From: Flavobacterium amnicola
Lineage (GTDB): Bacteria > Bacteroidota > Bacteroidia > Flavobacteriales > Flavobacteriaceae
DNA: 64,000 nt
Assembly (NCBI RefSeq): GCF_004122165.1
Contig: NZ_SBKO01000005.1
Coordinates: forward strand, 1-64,000
Reading direction: 5' to 3'
The notes under the pieces are model-generated. The model searched no databases. It worked only from the letters and a program-made list of their open reading frames with translations, and was not told the DNA's origin. A program made the position numbers and the translations under genes. Shown here in pieces: positions 9,721 through 17,150 of this stretch; the stretch's first letter is position 1; each line of letters begins with the position of its first letter.

Positions 9721-10309
9721 TCTCATATTGATCTTCCATTTGTTTAATGGCATCAATCATCTCTTGTATCCTATCGTATTCTTTTTGTTTTTGTTTTTTA
9801 CCTAAATAGAAATACGCAAAGAGCATCCAACCGACATAAAGAAATAATACAAATGCTTTAAGACCAGTTGACATAGGTTGCATTACTTCAATAAAATAAA
9901 AGACAAATGCTATATTTAAAACTATAAAATAAGCAAGACTAATTTTGGTGCTTACTATTTGTTGAAAAGCATAATATTTTTCAAGTTGGTTTAAAGTTAG
10001 GGATGGTTTTTGAGTCAAATCTATTTTTCGCAACGTGATCATTTGTGATAATCGTACCAAAGAAAAAGCTGTAACGCATAAAGCCATTAACAATAATCCA
10101 ATATAAGTTGTTGACATTTTAAAATTAATTGTTGAGCCTACCCAAAATAAAACGGGTAATACTAAAACGAGAGTGGCAATTTGAAAAAACACTTTATTAG
10201 AATATTGTGTTCGGTCTTTTTTTGCTTTCGTGATGATTTGAGAAACATCAGGAAGCGTTGTTTGTTGCTGTTGTTTCCAGATTTCCTGAAGGTTATTAAA
10301 TTCTTTCAT
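9716..10309 (-). CDS. Membrane protein paired with ECF sigma factor, candidate anti-sigma
   Basis: 197 residues: a soluble N-terminus (MKEFNNLQEIWKQQQQ, about 40 residues), then two pairs of membrane helices (about 41-60, 68-88, 120-140 and 148-168) and a charged C-terminal tail. I recognise no named domain. It starts 14 nt inside the 3' end of the sigma gene, so coupling is tight. A paralogous arrangement with the same 'M-E-x-L/F..L...W' opening lies at 16003-16641. The position and the cytosolic N-terminal helix suggest an anti-sigma or sensor role. This is inference, since no zinc or ASD motif is present. Confidence 0.7.
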   Translation of the reverse strand: MKEFNNLQEIWKQQQQTTLPDVSQIITKAKKDRTQYSNKVFFQIATLVLVLPVLFWVGSTINFKMSTTYIGLLLMALCVTAFSLVRLSQMITLRKIDLTQKPSLTLNQLEKYYAFQQIVSTKISLAYFIVLNIAFVFYFIEVMQPMSTGLKAFVLFLYVGWMLFAYFYLGKKQKQKEYDRIQEMIDAIKQMEDQYEK

Positions 10310-10790
10310 ATTTCGAATAAATAGTGCTAAGTTGTTGTTTGATTCGGTGAATTTTTACTCTTAGATTTCCTTCTGAAATATCGGTAATCGATGCAATTTC
10401 AGCATAAGGAACTTCTTCTAATAAAAGTGTAATGATGAGTCGGTCGGATTCAGGTAATTCGCTAATACATTTGTATAAAAGCTGAATTTGATTTTCCTTT
10501 TCATCAGTATCTTCACTTATTTTTAAAACAGTTTTTTCAATATCTACTTTAGTCGTTTTTTTAGCATTTCTGATGTACAAAAGGCACGTATTAACAGTAA
10601 TTCGGTATAACCAAGTGCTGACTTGCGATTCGCCTCTGAATTTTTCTAAATTTTCCCAAACTTTTATGAATACTTCTTGCAGTAAATCATCCGCCTGCAT
10701 ACTGTCACCGGTGTACCCCAAACACAACCGATGGACTTTTTGAGAATAAGTGGAATAAATGTCTTTAAATTGATTTTCTATTGAACTCAC
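10296..10790 (-). CDS. ECF-type RNA polymerase sigma factor (first of two)
   Basis: 164 residues with the two ECF regions. Sigma2 covers about residues 10-75 ('DDLLQEVFIKVWENLEKFRGESQVSTWLYRITVN', core 'DLLQEVFIKVW'). Sigma4 covers about 105-160 ('LPESDRLIITLLLEEVPYAEIASI', with helix-turn-helix 'ISEGNLRVKIHRIKQQL'). It directs RNA polymerase to alternative promoters. It lies between an alpha/beta hydrolase gene (7-nt gap) and a membrane protein (overlap), forming a three-gene leftward operon. Confidence 0.93.
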   Translation of the reverse strand: MSSIENQFKDIYSTYSQKVHRLCLGYTGDSMQADDLLQEVFIKVWENLEKFRGESQVSTWLYRITVNTCLLYIRNAKKTTKVDIEKTVLKISEDTDEKENQIQLLYKCISELPESDRLIITLLLEEVPYAEIASITDISEGNLRVKIHRIKQQLSTIYSKYERI

Positions 10791-10797
10791 TATTTGT

Positions 10798-11706
10798 TTA
10801 TGATTTTGAGTTTAAAAATAAATCAATTTCGTTATAAAACCATTCTGGTTGATCATACATGATGAAATGTTTTGCTTCGGCTACTTTGATGGTTTTGTTT
10901 TTTAGCTGTACATATTGAATTCCGTACTCTTTTTCACTGGCTTCTTTGGTTCCCCAAAGGCTGGCTAAAATCAAAATAGGCGCTTCAATTTTTGAAATTT
11001 CTTGTCTTAAATCGGTTGTCGACATTTCTACTATCGTGCTACCTAAAGTTTTGCGATCACTTTTAAAACTCCATTCAGCAATTTGTTTGGCACGAACACT
11101 ATCATTTACCTGATACAACATGGCTTTGGTCATATTTTTCACATAACCCTCAGAAGGTAATGATTCAAAATTTTTGATTACTGCTTGTTTGTTAAATTGC
11201 GGATTGTTTTTAGTAATTTCAGCAGTGATTTCAGGTTTTCCTACCGCAGAAACAAATGGAAGTCCATCAACACAAATACTTTTTCCAAACATTTTTGGCT
11301 GGCTGCTTTGTAACCAAAGAGTCATGAATGCACCAAGACTGTGACCTATAATCATTGGTTTTTTTAATTTCTTATCGTTTACATATTGAATGATGTCATT
11401 GTGAACGGTTTTAAGTATTTCCTCATTTTCAATAGGTTTTACGCCTCCAAATCCTGCAATAGTAATTACATGAAGTTCGTATTTGTTTTTTAAATGTGCT
11501 ACGGTTTCTTTCCAAACGTCTCCACTACAAGAATATCCCGGAATTAATAATACCGGTTTTCCTTTGCCAATTACAGTTACTTCAAAAGAGTGTTGATTTT
11601 GTGCAAATACATTTACAAATGCAAGAATTGCGACTACTAAAATGATGACTTTTTTACTAAAGCTTCTAGAATTGTTTGTTTCGTTTGTGTGAATCATTGA
11701 TTTCAT
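10798..11706 (-). CDS. Secreted or membrane-anchored alpha/beta hydrolase
   Basis: 302 residues. A hydrophobic segment (about 19-33) ending 'VNVFAQ' is a signal peptide preceded by a rather long N-terminus; an internal ATG at codon 4 is an alternative start. The alpha/beta fold shows 'PVLLIPGYSCSGDVW' (oxyanion region), the nucleophile elbow 'GHSLGAF' (Ser about 123), and a late His in 'VAEAKHFIMYDQ'. It is probably a periplasmic esterase or related hydrolase; the substrate is unknown. It is first in the operon with an ECF sigma factor, so the hydrolase may belong to the stress response controlled by that sigma. Confidence 0.85.
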   Translation of the reverse strand: MKSMIHTNETNNSRSFSKKVIILVVAILAFVNVFAQNQHSFEVTVIGKGKPVLLIPGYSCSGDVWKETVAHLKNKYELHVITIAGFGGVKPIENEEILKTVHNDIIQYVNDKKLKKPMIIGHSLGAFMTLWLQSSQPKMFGKSICVDGLPFVSAVGKPEITAEITKNNPQFNKQAVIKNFESLPSEGYVKNMTKAMLYQVNDSVRAKQIAEWSFKSDRKTLGSTIVEMSTTDLRQEISKIEAPILILASLWGTKEASEKEYGIQYVQLKNKTIKVAEAKHFIMYDQPEWFYNEIDLFLNSKS

Positions 11707-14062: not shown

Positions 14063-14944
14063 TTATGGTAGTAACAATTCAAAATATTTTCGAACCGATT
14101 TATCGTTGTCCTGTAATCCCATTTCAAGATGATTCTTAGTATTCTCTAATTTGTGTAAGGCTATTATTGATTCTTGTCTTATATGTGGGATACAATGTTT
14201 TTTGGAAAGTTCCATCAAGAAATTTTTTGTTTCATCGTCTCCAAATTTTGAAGCCAAATCTATTATTCCAAATTTAGATTCGGTAGACCCTTTGATAAGC
14301 CCGCTTATTTTTTGGTTTGGAATATCAAATTCATATTGTTTCATGTTGAATTGATTATACGATTTTAGGATCACATTTATGGCTAATGAATCTTCAGTAG
14401 TAGGAGGTAACTGAATATGAATGTCTTTTGATGGTTCATAAAAGATTGCTCTTTTTTCACAAAGGTTTGTGTGAATAGAAAAATCCAGTTGAACATCTTC
14501 TCCCACATATCCAATGGTTTTATTGTAATCGTATTGCCAAATTTTTGTCCAATATCCTTCTCCTTTATATCCCGTAGTTAATAATGCAAAATTATGATCA
14601 TGTGCATAATTATACGAAAATACTTGATTTTGAGAATTTTTAATGATACTGTTTTCAGATAGCATCGGCCAATACGTTGCTCTTATGTAATAATCATCTG
14701 TATTGTATAATAAAAAACTTTGTTCGTTGTAACTATTCTCTGATTGGAATCCGGATAGATTGTCTTTTAATTCTTCATTCAAATAATTGATAAAGAAATT
14801 TCGATTATTGCCTAACATTAATAGTTCATCTTTGATACTCAAAAGGGAATCAATATTGTCAAATTCAATTTTAGAATTAGCGATTTCAATAAATTCTTTT
14901 AATTCTAGGCTTTTATTACTGGTATCGTTAAATAGTATTGGCAT
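14063..14944 (-). CDS. HEAT-repeat protein with His-rich cupin-like core
   Basis: 293 residues, no signal peptide or membrane segment. An N-terminal helical region (1-70) is followed by a beta-rich core (about 75-195) with 'YIRATYWPML', 'YNYAHDHNFALLTTGYKGEG' (a His-x-His cluster), 'IWQYDY' and 'EPSKDIHIQLPP'. This pattern suggests a metal-binding cupin-like barrel, perhaps an enzyme. The C-terminal 90 residues form HEAT-like helices ('PHIRQESIIALHKLE', 'DNDKSVRKYFELLLP'). I know no characterised member. It overlaps the 3' end of the upstream paralogue by 17 nt. It probably acts with it and with the small peptide encoded upstream. Confidence 0.7.
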   Translation of the reverse strand: MPILFNDTSNKSLELKEFIEIANSKIEFDNIDSLLSIKDELLMLGNNRNFFINYLNEELKDNLSGFQSENSYNEQSFLLYNTDDYYIRATYWPMLSENSIIKNSQNQVFSYNYAHDHNFALLTTGYKGEGYWTKIWQYDYNKTIGYVGEDVQLDFSIHTNLCEKRAIFYEPSKDIHIQLPPTTEDSLAINVILKSYNQFNMKQYEFDIPNQKISGLIKGSTESKFGIIDLASKFGDDETKNFLMELSKKHCIPHIRQESIIALHKLENTKNHLEMGLQDNDKSVRKYFELLLP

Positions 14945-15755
14945 TTTCGGAGTTTAATAGTTTTAGAGATTCTTTTGCTGCTTTTTGAATTTCAGGATGC
15001 GAGTCTAACAGCATTTTTTTTAACTGAATAATTCCCGAATCATAATCCAAATTGATTAGCGCTTTCAATGCTTCCCATCGAATTGAATGGTTTTCGTTTG
15101 ATTGCAATGTGTTATGAATAAAATCTAAAGAATCTTGATTTCCAATTTCGGATAAAATTTTTAGTGTAGAAATAAGACGGTTATCATTTTGATCTGTAGA
15201 AATGAGCCTAATAGGTGCTAAGGTGTTTGTGTCATATTCCCAAATGAAATTCTCATAATCAATTAACTTGGTTAAACTTAGAAAATATACAGGGCTGTTA
15301 TTTTCAAATCGTATAAGATTATAAAATTTTTCAATAAAAATGGTGACGTTTGATTTTAAAATGTTGGATTCAATTATTTCTAATTTCGAGTCTTTTAATA
15401 AAATATTTGGCTGACAGCTTTTTTTCTGCGAATAGATGCTGTAGCTGTTATTGTTTTGATCAGAAAATAGAGGACAGAAAAAAACATCAGAATTATTAGA
15501 ATACAATTTTTTTGGATTCTTTCGACCAGCATTGTCTAGTATAATTAAAGATAATTCGAAATAGCTTGTATTGTCAATTTTGTAGCGTGTTGAGGAAGAA
15601 TCAATTGGAAAATAATAATCCAATTTGGTTAAATTTTTTAAATGGTAATTTAAAAAATTTGTTATTGAGAAAGTTGAAGAAAGTTGAGATAAATTATGAC
15701 AGATTTCTGCATTATCCAGTCCTTCTAGTTTGTGTAAAAACGATTTATAGTCCAT
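14928..15755 (-). CDS. HEAT-repeat protein, paralogue lacking the His motif
   Basis: 275 residues, soluble. The order is the same as in the downstream protein: an N-terminal helical part (MDYKSFLHKLEGLDNAEI), a middle beta-rich part, and C-terminal HEAT-like repeats ('HSIRWEALKALINLDYDSG', 'SHPEIQKAAKESLKLL') that align with those of its neighbour. The HDH cluster is absent, so it may be a non-catalytic partner or substrate-recognition subunit. The ATG at 15755 follows directly on the T-run of a terminator hairpin; the frame's earlier start at 15785 would lie inside that hairpin and was rejected. Composition is very rich in Asn, Lys and Ile. Confidence 0.65.
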   Translation of the reverse strand: MDYKSFLHKLEGLDNAEICHNLSQLSSTFSITNFLNYHLKNLTKLDYYFPIDSSSTRYKIDNTSYFELSLIILDNAGRKNPKKLYSNNSDVFFCPLFSDQNNNSYSIYSQKKSCQPNILLKDSKLEIIESNILKSNVTIFIEKFYNLIRFENNSPVYFLSLTKLIDYENFIWEYDTNTLAPIRLISTDQNDNRLISTLKILSEIGNQDSLDFIHNTLQSNENHSIRWEALKALINLDYDSGIIQLKKMLLDSHPEIQKAAKESLKLLNSENANTI

Positions 15756-15757
15756 AT

Positions 15758-15790
15758 AAAAAAAAACTGTGAAGGTTAACTTCACAGTTT
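15758..15790 (-). terminator. Attenuator-like terminator between the peptide gene and the HEAT genes
   Basis: Stem arms 15780-15790 and 15764-15774 (AAACTGTGAAG / CTTCACAGTTT, 11 bp perfect, loop 5 nt) are followed on the minus strand by nine T (15766-15758). The run ends 2 nt before the HEAT-gene ATG. Partial read-through would give many peptide transcripts and few enzyme transcripts. Confidence 0.8.
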
Positions 15791-15806
15791 GATTACAAGT
15801 TAAAAT

Positions 15807-15938
15807 TTAATCTGCTAGCCAAGTTGCTATACTTGTTCCAACATATACTCCTACGGCTACGATAACTGTAGTTGATGTGGCATCACTCAGATTTGAAGTT
15901 ACAGGATTCTGTAAATCCACTAATTTTAAATTTCTCAT
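15807..15938 (-). CDS. 43-residue peptide, candidate RiPP/bacteriocin-like precursor
   Basis: The frame runs from ATG at 15938 to TAA at 15807. The N-terminal half is polar and leader-like (MRNLKLVDLQNPVTSNLSDA). The C-terminal half is Thr/Val/Gly-rich and hydrophobic (TSTTVIVAVGVYVGTSIATW, ending LAD), with no Cys and no GG cleavage site. It has its own candidate promoter and its own terminator hairpin, and is followed by two HEAT-repeat genes. The arrangement, a short peptide expressed above downstream helper proteins, is typical of peptide-maturation loci, but the function is inferred. It could instead be a small membrane peptide. No homologue was recognised. Confidence 0.6.
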   Translation of the reverse strand: MRNLKLVDLQNPVTSNLSDATSTTVIVAVGVYVGTSIATWLAD

Positions 15939-15962
15939 AAAGTTTGTTTATTTAGATTTAGT

Positions 15963-15970
15963 CAAAAATA
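15963..15970 (-). promoter_or_regulatory. Candidate -7 box of the small peptide gene
   Basis: On the minus strand TATTTTTG, 24 nt upstream of the ATG and inside the 64-nt gap after the membrane-protein gene. No TTG occurs 17-23 nt further up, so an alternative sigma factor, perhaps the neighbouring ECF factor, is possible. Confidence 0.4.
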
Positions 15971-16002
15971 AATAAAATATAAGAATAATCTTACTTTTTT
16001 AT

Positions 16003-16641
16003 TTATTTAAAATCAATTTTTTTTAATTCGTTAAAATTTTTCTTCAAACGCTTTAATAGGAGGCCATACATAATATAATATAACAAGATGAAAACGCCTA
16101 TAATAAAAATCAAAATAGTTAAATAAACCCCAATTAAAAACACAAAACGCATATTACTATTCTCTACAGAGTCGTGCAATATTTGTTGGATTTTTTGATC
16201 ATGCGTAATTTGTGAAATCATGAAAATGAAGTAAATAACGATAATCATACTTAAATTATACCAAAAATAGTATTTAACCGTATTACGGGAATTTAAAATA
16301 CTGGCTAACATGCCTTTAACACTGTCTGAGGTGCTTATTTTTTTGTAATTTCTATAAAATTTTATAATAAAATAGACGATGATAAGGTAATTTACGTAGG
16401 TAAACGTTTCAATTATTATTTTTAGATGATAGGCTTCCAATAAATCGGTATACTTAGTGTCGTCGCTAAAAATAAAGCTCAATCCAGTCCAGAATAAAAT
16501 TTCTATTACACTAATAATAAATATCCATTTTATCGCCGAAGAAGAATTCTTGTGCAACATGCCATAGATTTTTTCTTCCGAAACATTCGGATAATTATCG
16601 CTTTTATTCCAAGTTTTTTTTAATAAATCCAACTCTTCCAT
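16003..16641 (-). CDS. Membrane protein paired with second ECF sigma factor, candidate anti-sigma
   Basis: 212 residues. The soluble N-terminus (MEELDLLKKTWNKSDNYPNV, to about residue 35) is followed by four hydrophobic helices (about 36-57, 75-95, 125-145 and 170-195) and a basic tail. Layout, size and opening motif match the protein at 9716-10309, whose gene also follows an ECF sigma gene. No known anti-sigma domain was recognised. Starting 14 nt after the sigma stop, it is almost surely co-transcribed with it. I infer membrane control of the sigma factor. Confidence 0.7.
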   Translation of the reverse strand: MEELDLLKKTWNKSDNYPNVSEEKIYGMLHKNSSSAIKWIFIISVIEILFWTGLSFIFSDDTKYTDLLEAYHLKIIIETFTYVNYLIIVYFIIKFYRNYKKISTSDSVKGMLASILNSRNTVKYYFWYNLSMIIVIYFIFMISQITHDQKIQQILHDSVENSNMRFVFLIGVYLTILIFIIGVFILLYYIMYGLLLKRLKKNFNELKKIDFK

Positions 16642-16655
16642 TTTCTCCTTTATCG

Positions 16656-17150
16656 TTACGGATTAATAATTTGTTTCAGTTTTGTTTTAATTCTATTCAT
16701 TTTCACACGGGCATTAACTTCACTAATACCCAATGTTTCGGCAATTTCAGTATAATCTTTATCTTCCAAATACATGAAGACCAAGGCTTTTTCAATGTCA
16801 TTTAATTGCTGAACTGCTTTGTATAATAGTTTGATGTGTTCTTCTTCCTCATAGTTGTATTCTTCCTGCAAAACAAAATGCCTACCAGTTTCAAATTCAA
16901 TTGTATTGACTGATTTGGTTGATTTTCGATATAAAGTAATAGCAGTATTAAGAGCCACTCTATAAGCCCAAGTTGAAAATTTTGATTCGCCTCTAAACTT
17001 AGGAAAGGCTTTCCAAAGCTGAATGGTTATTTCCTGAAACAAATCATTGTGTTCGTCCTCATTTTGAGTATATAGCCGACAAATCTTATGAACAATGTTC
17101 TGATTTTCTTTTAGTTGCGTAACAAAGGATTGCTCTAGCGTGGTACTCAT
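16656..17150 (-). CDS. ECF-type RNA polymerase sigma factor (second of two)
   Basis: 164 residues, the same length as the first. Sigma2 is visible as 'DLFQEITIQLWKAFPKFRGE' and 'FSTWAYRVALNTAI'; sigma4 as 'LVFMYLEDKDYTEIAETLGI' with 'SEVNARVKMNRIKTKLKQI'. It leads a leftward group: sigma, membrane protein, then (past a new promoter) the small peptide and two HEAT proteins. It is a plausible regulator of that locus. Confidence 0.93.
   Translation of the reverse strand: MSTTLEQSFVTQLKENQNIVHKICRLYTQNEDEHNDLFQEITIQLWKAFPKFRGESKFSTWAYRVALNTAITLYRKSTKSVNTIEFETGRHFVLQEEYNYEEEEHIKLLYKAVQQLNDIEKALVFMYLEDKDYTEIAETLGISEVNARVKMNRIKTKLKQIINP

What the first reader, a model, noticed from the sequence alone, without database searches (positions are those of the whole stretch)
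14063..17150. Possible undescribed peptide locus: ECF sigma factor, membrane regulator, 43-residue peptide, attenuator and two HEAT-repeat proteins
Five leftward genes lie together. A 43-residue peptide (15807-15938) with a polar leader-like half and a hydrophobic Thr/Val/Gly-rich half ends in a perfect terminator hairpin. Its T-run stops 2 nt before the ATG of a HEAT-repeat gene, itself overlapping a second HEAT gene with a His-x-His core. High peptide and low helper expression is the design of precursor-peptide loci. An ECF sigma factor and a membrane protein directly upstream could switch it on. No standard RiPP enzyme is present, so if real the chemistry would be new. The function is inference.
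Basis: partly seen in the sequence, partly recalled or inferred. Interest (0 to 1): 0.78.

Follow-up and report, generated by a model that had tools for sequence, protein, structure and literature searches.

The report
Peptide gene with paired dioxygenase-like helpers
A tiny peptide gene travels with two neighbouring genes for unusual dioxygenase-shaped proteins in distantly related bacteria, which suggests an undescribed way of making an oxidised, gene-encoded peptide, though no product has been seen.

Summary
The 43-aa ORF, the hairpin after it and the two overlapping "HEAT" genes form a conserved unit. HEAT2 relatives lie in Proteobacteria, a planctomycete MAG and three other genomes of the window's family. 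In 87 of 87 examined HEAT2 genes a HEAT1 gene lies directly upstream. A peptide of one family lies before HEAT1 in 82 of these 87 (three misses are contig edges), and a small ORF does so in all three family relatives. Relatives evolve as coding sequence (pooled pN/pS 0.30). The window peptide matches one family relative better than 5000 of 5000 shuffles, and a hairpin follows the peptide in all four family cassettes. HEAT repeats are only the C-terminal part; both predicted structures have an N-terminal thiol-dioxygenase (cupin) fold. HEAT2 keeps an HxH...H pattern; HEAT1 mostly lacks HxH. Best reading: a precursor peptide modified by a metal-dependent oxygenase (HEAT2) with a degenerate partner (HEAT1). 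Catalysis and product are inferred. Cys occurs in only 36 of 93 peptides, so thiol oxidation cannot be the shared reaction. The sigma/membrane pair is probably not part of the unit. No held library or paper searched describes it.

The parts
15807..15938 (-). 43-aa peptide gene, proposed precursor: polar N-terminal half, hydrophobic C-terminal half
   Evidence: Small ORF at the same place in L163 aligns at score 69.5; 0 of 5000 half-wise shuffles reach it (L162: 53, L161: 182 of 5000). Rank 1 of 459 small ORFs of the window in similarity to 93 family peptides, 51 against 49 for the runner-up; 10 of 1000 shuffles reach it. Not found by the proteobacterial peptide HMMs.
15764..15790 (-). Rho-independent terminator-like hairpin between peptide and HEAT1, proposed attenuator
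   Evidence: z -5.27; hairpins at the same place in L161, L162, L163 with z -4.41, -6.34, -3.42.
14928..15755 (-). HEAT1: degenerate thiol-dioxygenase-fold domain plus C-terminal HEAT repeats; proposed partner subunit
   Evidence: AlphaFold2 mean pLDDT 86.0; VIA Z 12.8 to mercaptosuccinate dioxygenase; any HxH in only 10 of 87 HEAT1 proteins; HEAT_2 34.5 bits.
14063..14944 (-). HEAT2: thiol-dioxygenase-fold domain with His115-Asp-His117...His176 plus HEAT-like C-terminus; proposed catalytic subunit
   Evidence: AlphaFold2 mean pLDDT 92.9; Foldseek E 3.8e-8 and VIA Z 14.2 to thiol dioxygenases, alignments within residues 8-223; H115, D116, H117, D174, H176, Q178 invariant in 55 sequences.
15963..15970 (-). 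TAnnTTTG box (TATTTTTG) 24 nt before the peptide ATG, a possible Bacteroidota -7 promoter element (consensus recalled)
   Evidence: also before the peptide in L161 and L162, not in L163; 5.8% of background 80-nt stretches hold one (9.9% of AT-rich ones). No TTG at the recalled -33 spacing in the upstream sequence printed.
16003..16641 (-). Membrane protein next to the sigma factor: neighbour, probably not part of the unit
   Evidence: Match in 32 of 60 related genomes, own included, whereas HEAT1 and HEAT2 were not credibly found in any other of 199.
16656..17150 (-). ECF sigma factor: neighbour, probably not part of the unit
   Evidence: Sigma70_r2 61.4 bits, r4_2 37.7 bits; beside the membrane gene in 29 of 29 relatives' loci read, L098-L126.

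Best explanation
The unit is peptide gene, hairpin, HEAT1, HEAT2: a small self-contained peptide-modification cassette, RiPP-like, which the window's genome acquired between two convergent core genes. The peptide's N-terminal half serves as a recognition region and the hydrophobic C-terminal half as the part that is modified. HEAT2 binds a metal, probably iron, with three histidines (H115, H117, H176) in a thiol-dioxygenase-type cupin and oxidises the peptide with O2. HEAT1 is its degenerate sister and acts as partner, the HEAT repeats of one or both holding the peptide. The hairpin lets most transcripts end after the peptide, so that much peptide and little enzyme is made. Shown by computation: conserved order, coding conservation of relatives, predicted folds, conservation of the histidine pattern, the hairpin. 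Inferred: metal, catalysis, recognition, attenuation, product, export and purpose.
For: 87 of 87 HEAT2 genes have HEAT1 directly upstream, mostly overlapping. A family peptide lies within 1 kb upstream of HEAT1 in 82 of 87 pairs; three misses lie at a contig edge, the others are the Vibrio plasmid and the window. Of 4799 control ORFs in the same loci 8 hit, all 8 being peptides of the other pair in a two-pair locus. An HMM trained on 77 peptides of the remaining loci puts, among 1736 small ORFs of ten test loci, only ORFs upstream of HEAT1 in its top 16, from six of the eight test loci with known peptides. Pooled pN/pS 0.30 over 26 disjoint pairs; tandem copies with identical protein in L059 and L089 differ at 1-5 synonymous positions. 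Window-family cassettes: 4 of 397 genomes, own included, each with a peptide ORF and a hairpin, at three sites that share no other gene in the stretches compared. Folds. Histidine pattern in 84 of 87 HEAT2, any HxH in 10 of 87 HEAT1. HlyD/ABC exporters or LytTR and histidine-kinase regulators beside some loci.
Against: No product, activity or transcript is known. No exporter, protease or known RiPP enzyme lies in the window's unit. Cys occurs in 36 of 93 distinct peptides and not in the window's, so classic thiol oxidation cannot be the common reaction and the reaction is unknown. In Erythrobacteraceae the cassette sits among what look like housekeeping genes (gene names recalled), odd for an antibiotic-like product. 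37 of 83 pairs have no room for a hairpin, and only 16 of the 46 folded have z below -2. The window peptide is not found by the family HMM (E 8.2). The Vibrio plasmid pair has no recognisable peptide.
Confidence: 0.58

Rival explanations
1. A regulatory or sensor module: the peptide is a small membrane-associated regulator and the HEAT pair senses oxygen, metal or thiols through the cupin, binding or releasing the peptide without making a secreted product.
For: Hydrophobic stretch in 60 of 93 peptides, always in the C-terminal half; the thiol dioxygenase ADO serves in oxygen sensing (PMC8503633, passages); stable, apparently housekeeping context in Erythrobacteraceae.
Against: Tandem peptide copies with identical protein in L059 and L089, three different peptides in L017, and exporter genes beside gammaproteobacterial loci look like product formation.
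Confidence: 0.22
2. An unmodified toxic or bacteriocin-like hydrophobic peptide with the HEAT pair as immunity or antitoxin proteins.
For: Hydrophobic C-terminal half, occurrence on plasmids, two peptide types side by side in L014, L016, L017, L023.
Against: Immunity needs no invariant metal-site histidines; the fold match is to oxygenases; the only padloc match is a generic HEAT model (E 9.5e-5, HEAT1).
Confidence: 0.1
3. One reading: a stress-type operon run by the ECF sigma factor and the membrane regulator, with the peptide as its output.
For: 12 of 82 other loci, all alphaproteobacterial, have a sigma factor and a membrane protein directly upstream on the same strand.
Against: In the window's genus the pair exists without the cassette; no sigma hit around the cassette in L161-L163; the window's and the alphaproteobacterial membrane proteins show no detectable homology (hhalign probability 4%); a possible promoter box of the peptide's own.
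Confidence: 0.1
4. The window ORF is a chance ORF beside two real HEAT genes.
For: Short ORFs are common (459 of 28-70 aa in the window), another window ORF scores nearly as high against the family (49 against 51), and the family HMM misses this one.
Against: Match to the L163 peptide at the same place, reached by 0 of 5000 shuffles; hairpin at the same place in four cassettes; pN/pS 0.23 between the L161 and L162 peptides.
Confidence: 0.02

Closest known systems
Thiol dioxygenases (cysteine dioxygenase, mercaptosuccinate dioxygenase, ADO/PCO)
   Same: Predicted N-terminal domain has the same fold (the 50 VIA rows shown for HEAT2 run from Z 14.2 to 10.2) and HEAT2 has the HxH...H pattern of a 3-His metal site.
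   Different: No thiol-dioxygenase sequence match in Pfam for HEAT1 or HEAT2 or in the PDB for HEAT2; C-terminal HEAT repeats; a sister gene always beside it; a peptide gene that often encodes no Cys.
RiPP systems with metal-dependent oxidative enzymes (MNIO/DUF692 with partner protein; cupin-like hydroxylase PbsQ)
   Same: A short precursor gene beside an iron-type oxidative enzyme and a partner protein (PMC12257519, passages).
   Different: No DUF692 or JmjC-type hit in Pfam or NCBIfam for the unit's proteins; no modification shown.
HEAT_2 repeat proteins (PF13646)
   Same: C-terminal helical repeats match above cut-off in HEAT1 of the window, L014 and L022.
   Different: Only the C-terminal part; the rest is a cupin domain; HEAT2 stays below the cut-off.
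Two-peptide bacteriocins and daptide-type peptides
   Same: Short hydrophobic peptides, in some loci two types side by side.
   Different: The best daptide model match is chance level (E 0.09); comparison with two-peptide bacteriocins rests on recall and was not tested.

Membership tests
RiPP biosynthetic system | Short genetically encoded precursor next to dedicated helper genes | tested here: met
   82 of 87 pairs; a small ORF in 4 of 4 cassettes of the window's family.
RiPP biosynthetic system | N-terminal half more conserved than C-terminal half (leader/core) | tested here: inconclusive
   In 93 peptides the strongest columns lie in the N-terminal half (L in 87 of 90, G in 75 of 92), but the window and L163 peptides share both ends.
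RiPP biosynthetic system | A known RiPP-modifying enzyme or recognition domain | tested here: not met
   None in Pfam or NCBIfam scans of the unit's proteins; this argues against known classes only. No dedicated recognition-domain search was run.
RiPP biosynthetic system | Dedicated export or leader protease | tested here: inconclusive
   ABC-ATPase cluster in 13 and HlyD-type cluster in 8 of 83 loci, some on the other strand or kilobases away; no exporter adjoins the window's cassette.
RiPP biosynthetic system | Post-translationally modified product | not testable with these tools
   Needs mass spectrometry.
Thiol dioxygenase superfamily | Cupin fold of the superfamily | tested here: met
   HEAT2: Foldseek E 3.8e-8, VIA Z 14.2, rmsd 3.4 over 164 residues; HEAT1: Z 12.8, rmsd 3.3 over 163; both on predicted models.
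Thiol dioxygenase superfamily | 3-His metal centre (strictly conserved, PMC8503633, passage) | tested here: inconclusive
   HEAT2: H115, H117, H176 invariant in 55 sequences, pattern in 84 of 87; geometry and metal not tested. HEAT1: mostly absent.
Thiol dioxygenase superfamily | Detectable sequence relationship | tested here: not met
   No thiol-dioxygenase hit in Pfam or, for HEAT2, in the PDB.
Thiol dioxygenase superfamily | Thiol substrate | tested here: inconclusive
   Cys in 36 of 93 peptides, none in the window's; a substrate other than the peptide is not excluded.
ECF sigma regulon member | Sigma factor gene linked to the cassette in relatives | tested here: not met
   No sigma hit around L161-L163, the three nearest known cassettes; 12 of 82 other loci do have a pair.

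The most novel reading that the evidence does not exclude
A widespread, undescribed class of ribosomal peptides made by a heteromeric, 3-His thiol-dioxygenase-fold/HEAT oxygenase whose chemistry is not thiol oxidation, since its peptide substrates often have no cysteine; the same minimal cassette has spread across three phyla (the window's, Pseudomonadota and, by one MAG, Planctomycetota).
Probability: 0.45. Interest if true: 0.92.

Novelty: new variant of a known kind. Interest (0 to 1): 0.8.

Why it matters
If true, it adds an oxygenase type to peptide natural-product biosynthesis and a search handle (the HDHNF...DxHxQ HEAT2 gene behind a HEAT1 gene) that already points to 226 loci in one scan. 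It would also show a thiol-dioxygenase fold acting on peptides through something other than cysteine. The cassette has only four small parts, so function can be tested directly in E. coli.

Tried and rejected
Single-sequence searches for the peptide (150 genomes) and the HEAT proteins (199 genomes) gave only weak hits beside the own genome. The two HEAT hits (L010, L012) hold stops and fall on other genes; of the peptide hits I read only L008. A first genome-contig scan with HEAT1 found no relative. Plasmid tblastn with HEAT1 and phage tblastn with HEAT2 found nothing. A viral scan with window HEAT2 alone found no relative.

Considered and rejected: a known defence system (padloc); a known phage family (PHROGs); a chance ORF; thiol oxidation as the common chemistry. 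Homology between the window's membrane protein and the alphaproteobacterial one was tested and not found. Prevalence within Sphingomonadales could not be measured. Some gaps folded (such as L075, L081, L085) rest on HEAT1 starts set too late, and gaps under 18 nt were not folded. Many gene clusters look like antisense ORFs of GC-rich genomes; I did not use those.

Papers: ten searches brought up no description of this pair; only open-licence PubMed Central papers are held. I saw search listings for these, passages of PMC4019311, PMC12257519 and PMC8503633, and a term search without hits in PMC11002830. No whole paper was read.

Full report
What is in the sequence. HEAT1 (14928-15755) overlaps HEAT2 (14063-14944) by 17 nt. 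Pfam sees HEAT_2 near the C-terminus of each, above the cut-off for HEAT1 alone; the peptide and the membrane protein match nothing above a cut-off, and the sigma factor is an ECF type. I call the genomes sharing its family code 'the window's family' and those sharing its genus code 'the genus'.

The cassette is an insertion. HEAT1 and HEAT2 were not credibly found in any other of 199 related genomes (one weak match with stops for each, discarded after reading). The membrane gene matches in 32 of 60 relatives, own included. In the 29 other loci fetched with it (about 3.6 kb each, L098-L126) the sigma gene adjoins it in 29, the acyltransferase is also in reach in 20, and nudix and NADH dehydrogenase as well in 9. 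Between acyltransferase and membrane gene, six relatives read have 6 to about 150 nt and no cassette, while L098, L100 and L119 have an ORF of about 285 aa there.

A widespread family. tblastn found HEAT2 relatives on an Alteromonas and a Vibrio plasmid. In the Alteromonas locus two small ORFs without a listed gene stand before the HEAT1-HEAT2 pair. An alignment of four HEAT2 proteins found 226 confirmed relatives among 287 stretches in genome contigs; the tool kept 80. I worked on those 80, the two plasmid loci and the window: 83 loci. L013 and L096 (one contig of the viral collection) were left out of the pair counts because HEAT2 lies at the contig end. Four loci hold two pairs, giving 87 HEAT2 genes; all 87 have a HEAT1 gene directly upstream, usually overlapping by 1 or 13 nt (a first, cruder rule gave 83 of 89, its misses being L013/L096 and four starts set too far upstream).

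The peptide. A seed of 21 hand-picked small ORFs, the window's included, was iterated on ORFs upstream of HEAT1. 82 of 87 pairs have a family peptide; the misses are L015, L025, L031, L055 and the window. L025, L031 and L055 have under 75 nt of DNA upstream, so this is 82 of 84 pairs with upstream DNA. Of 4799 control ORFs elsewhere in the same loci 8 hit, and all 8 are peptides of the other pair in a two-pair locus. Because the seed was chosen by hand, I trained an HMM on the 77 peptides of the remaining loci (alphaproteobacterial, but for one record named Bacillus) and tested all 1736 small ORFs of ten other loci. The top 16 are all upstream of HEAT1, from six of the eight test loci with known peptides; L077 and L023 come 18th and 19th at chance-level E-values, and L015 has none. 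The window peptide (E 8.2) and the Alteromonas 'EPV' peptides are not found that way. Over 26 disjoint pairs (at least 60% identity and 6 differences; other pairs dropped) pooled pN/pS is 0.30. Tandem copies with identical protein, four in L089 and three in L059, differ by 1-5 synonymous changes; L059's fourth copy has one residue more and was not compared. The 93 distinct peptides are 36-60 aa long; 36 hold Cys, and 60 have a hydrophobic stretch, always in the C-terminal half.

The window peptide itself. Against the 93 peptides it scores highest of 459 small ORFs of the window (51, runner-up 49); 10 of 1000 half-wise shuffles reach that score and 23 of 1000 its top-five mean. Stronger support came from a profile search of the window's family: 4 of 397 genomes, own included. 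A search of 395 genomes spread over the phylum found only the own genome. All three new cassettes have a small ORF before HEAT1. The L163 peptide aligns with the window's at score 69.5, reached by 0 of 5000 half-wise shuffles; the L162 score is reached by 53 and the L161 score by 182 of 5000. The L161 and L162 peptides differ with pN/pS 0.23. Hairpins follow the peptide in L161, L162 and L163 (z -4.41, -6.34, -3.42). At blastp E 1e-5 no gene other than HEAT1 and HEAT2 is shared between the stretches around the window's, the L161/L162 and the L163 cassettes, so the minimal unit is peptide, hairpin, HEAT1, HEAT2.

Hairpin in the wider family. 46 of 83 peptide-HEAT1 gaps were long enough to fold; 16 have z below -2 and the window is the strongest; the other 37 pairs have under 18 nt or overlap. 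So the hairpin is a feature of part of the family, not of all.

The proteins. AlphaFold2 gives HEAT2 a mean pLDDT of 92.9 and HEAT1 86.0 from 55 and 52 sequences. VIA-align ranks mercaptosuccinate dioxygenase first for both: HEAT2 Z 14.2 (rmsd 3.4, 164 residues), HEAT1 Z 12.8 (rmsd 3.3, 163 residues); Foldseek's first rows are thiol and cysteine dioxygenases. The two are distant sisters (hhalign probability 94%, E 1.6e-7, over the end of the cupin and the HEAT part). H115, D116, H117, D174, H176 and Q178 of HEAT2 are invariant in 55 sequences. The strict motif with the downstream [DE]xHxQ part is in 84 of 87; one HEAT2 each in L032, L040 and L072 fails the motif but holds an HxH; HEAT1 has any HxH in 10 of 87. 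In thiol dioxygenases the 3-His coordination is strictly conserved, and ADO acts on proteins with an N-terminal cysteine (PMC8503633, passages). In a quick tree made before L161-L163 were known, the window's HEAT2 is a long branch outside the large proteobacterial group, its exact place unsure.

Surroundings. An ECF sigma and a membrane protein stand upstream in 12 of 82 other loci, all alphaproteobacterial, but their membrane protein shows no detectable homology to the window's. BLAST clusters place ABC ATPases in 13 loci, some on the other strand or kilobases away, and HlyD-type proteins in 8. In L059 HlyD, ABC, Yip1, histidine-kinase and LytTR genes follow the cassette; L089 looks alike but was not scanned. 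L077 has a LytTR regulator before and a LuxR-type autoinducer-binding regulator behind the cassette.

How it most likely works. The arrangement is that of a precursor with a two-protein modifying enzyme. The conserved metal-site pattern in HEAT2 and its rarity in HEAT1 suggest a catalytic subunit with a partner. Since most peptides have no cysteine, the shared reaction is not thiol oxidation of the peptide; what it is remains open. Export may use general transporters where no dedicated one is present. All of this paragraph is inference.

Verdict. A real, conserved and apparently undescribed cassette. Novelty rests on Pfam and NCBIfam scans of window and relative proteins, PHROGs and padloc scans of the window's, and ten paper searches in an open-licence library, so a description elsewhere cannot be excluded. 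I class it as a new variant of a known kind because ribosomal peptides with dedicated oxidative enzymes are a known kind; if the chemistry proves new it would be a new class within it.

Noticed in passing
window 10296-10790, - strand: A second ORF clustering with ECF sigma factors, beside an alpha/beta-hydrolase-like ORF (10798-11706; name recalled).
   Followed up: no
L098 2144-2998, L100 644-1498, L119 2155-3012: Relatives carry an unrelated ORF of about 285 aa in the slot where the window has the cassette; it looks like a TraB/GumN-type protein (recalled), so this intergenic site is a variable one.
   Followed up: partly
L089 8164-8869 and L059 8089-8879: Five tandem peptide genes before HEAT1: in L089 four encode the same protein, in L059 three do and a fourth has one residue more; the fifth is divergent in both. 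The identical ones differ only synonymously.
   Followed up: yes
L077 4796-19713 (Blastopirellula MAG): Cassette between LytTR and LuxR-type regulators, with an ABC-like gene and a very long polyketide-synthase-like ORF downstream (names recalled).
   Followed up: partly
L039: Record named Bacillus sp. 2B10, but its cassette groups with Sphingomonas hankookensis in the tree: probably mislabelled or contaminated.
   Followed up: no
L015 7267-8675 (Vibrio plasmid): Short, very divergent pair without a recognisable peptide, near a Tn3 transposase and restriction-modification genes; perhaps a different or decaying version.
   Followed up: partly
L013 1817-2932 and 3533-4414: In a contig of the viral collection a HEAT2 gene lies at the contig end near an integrase-like ORF (name recalled), hinting at transfer by an integrating element.
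   Followed up: no
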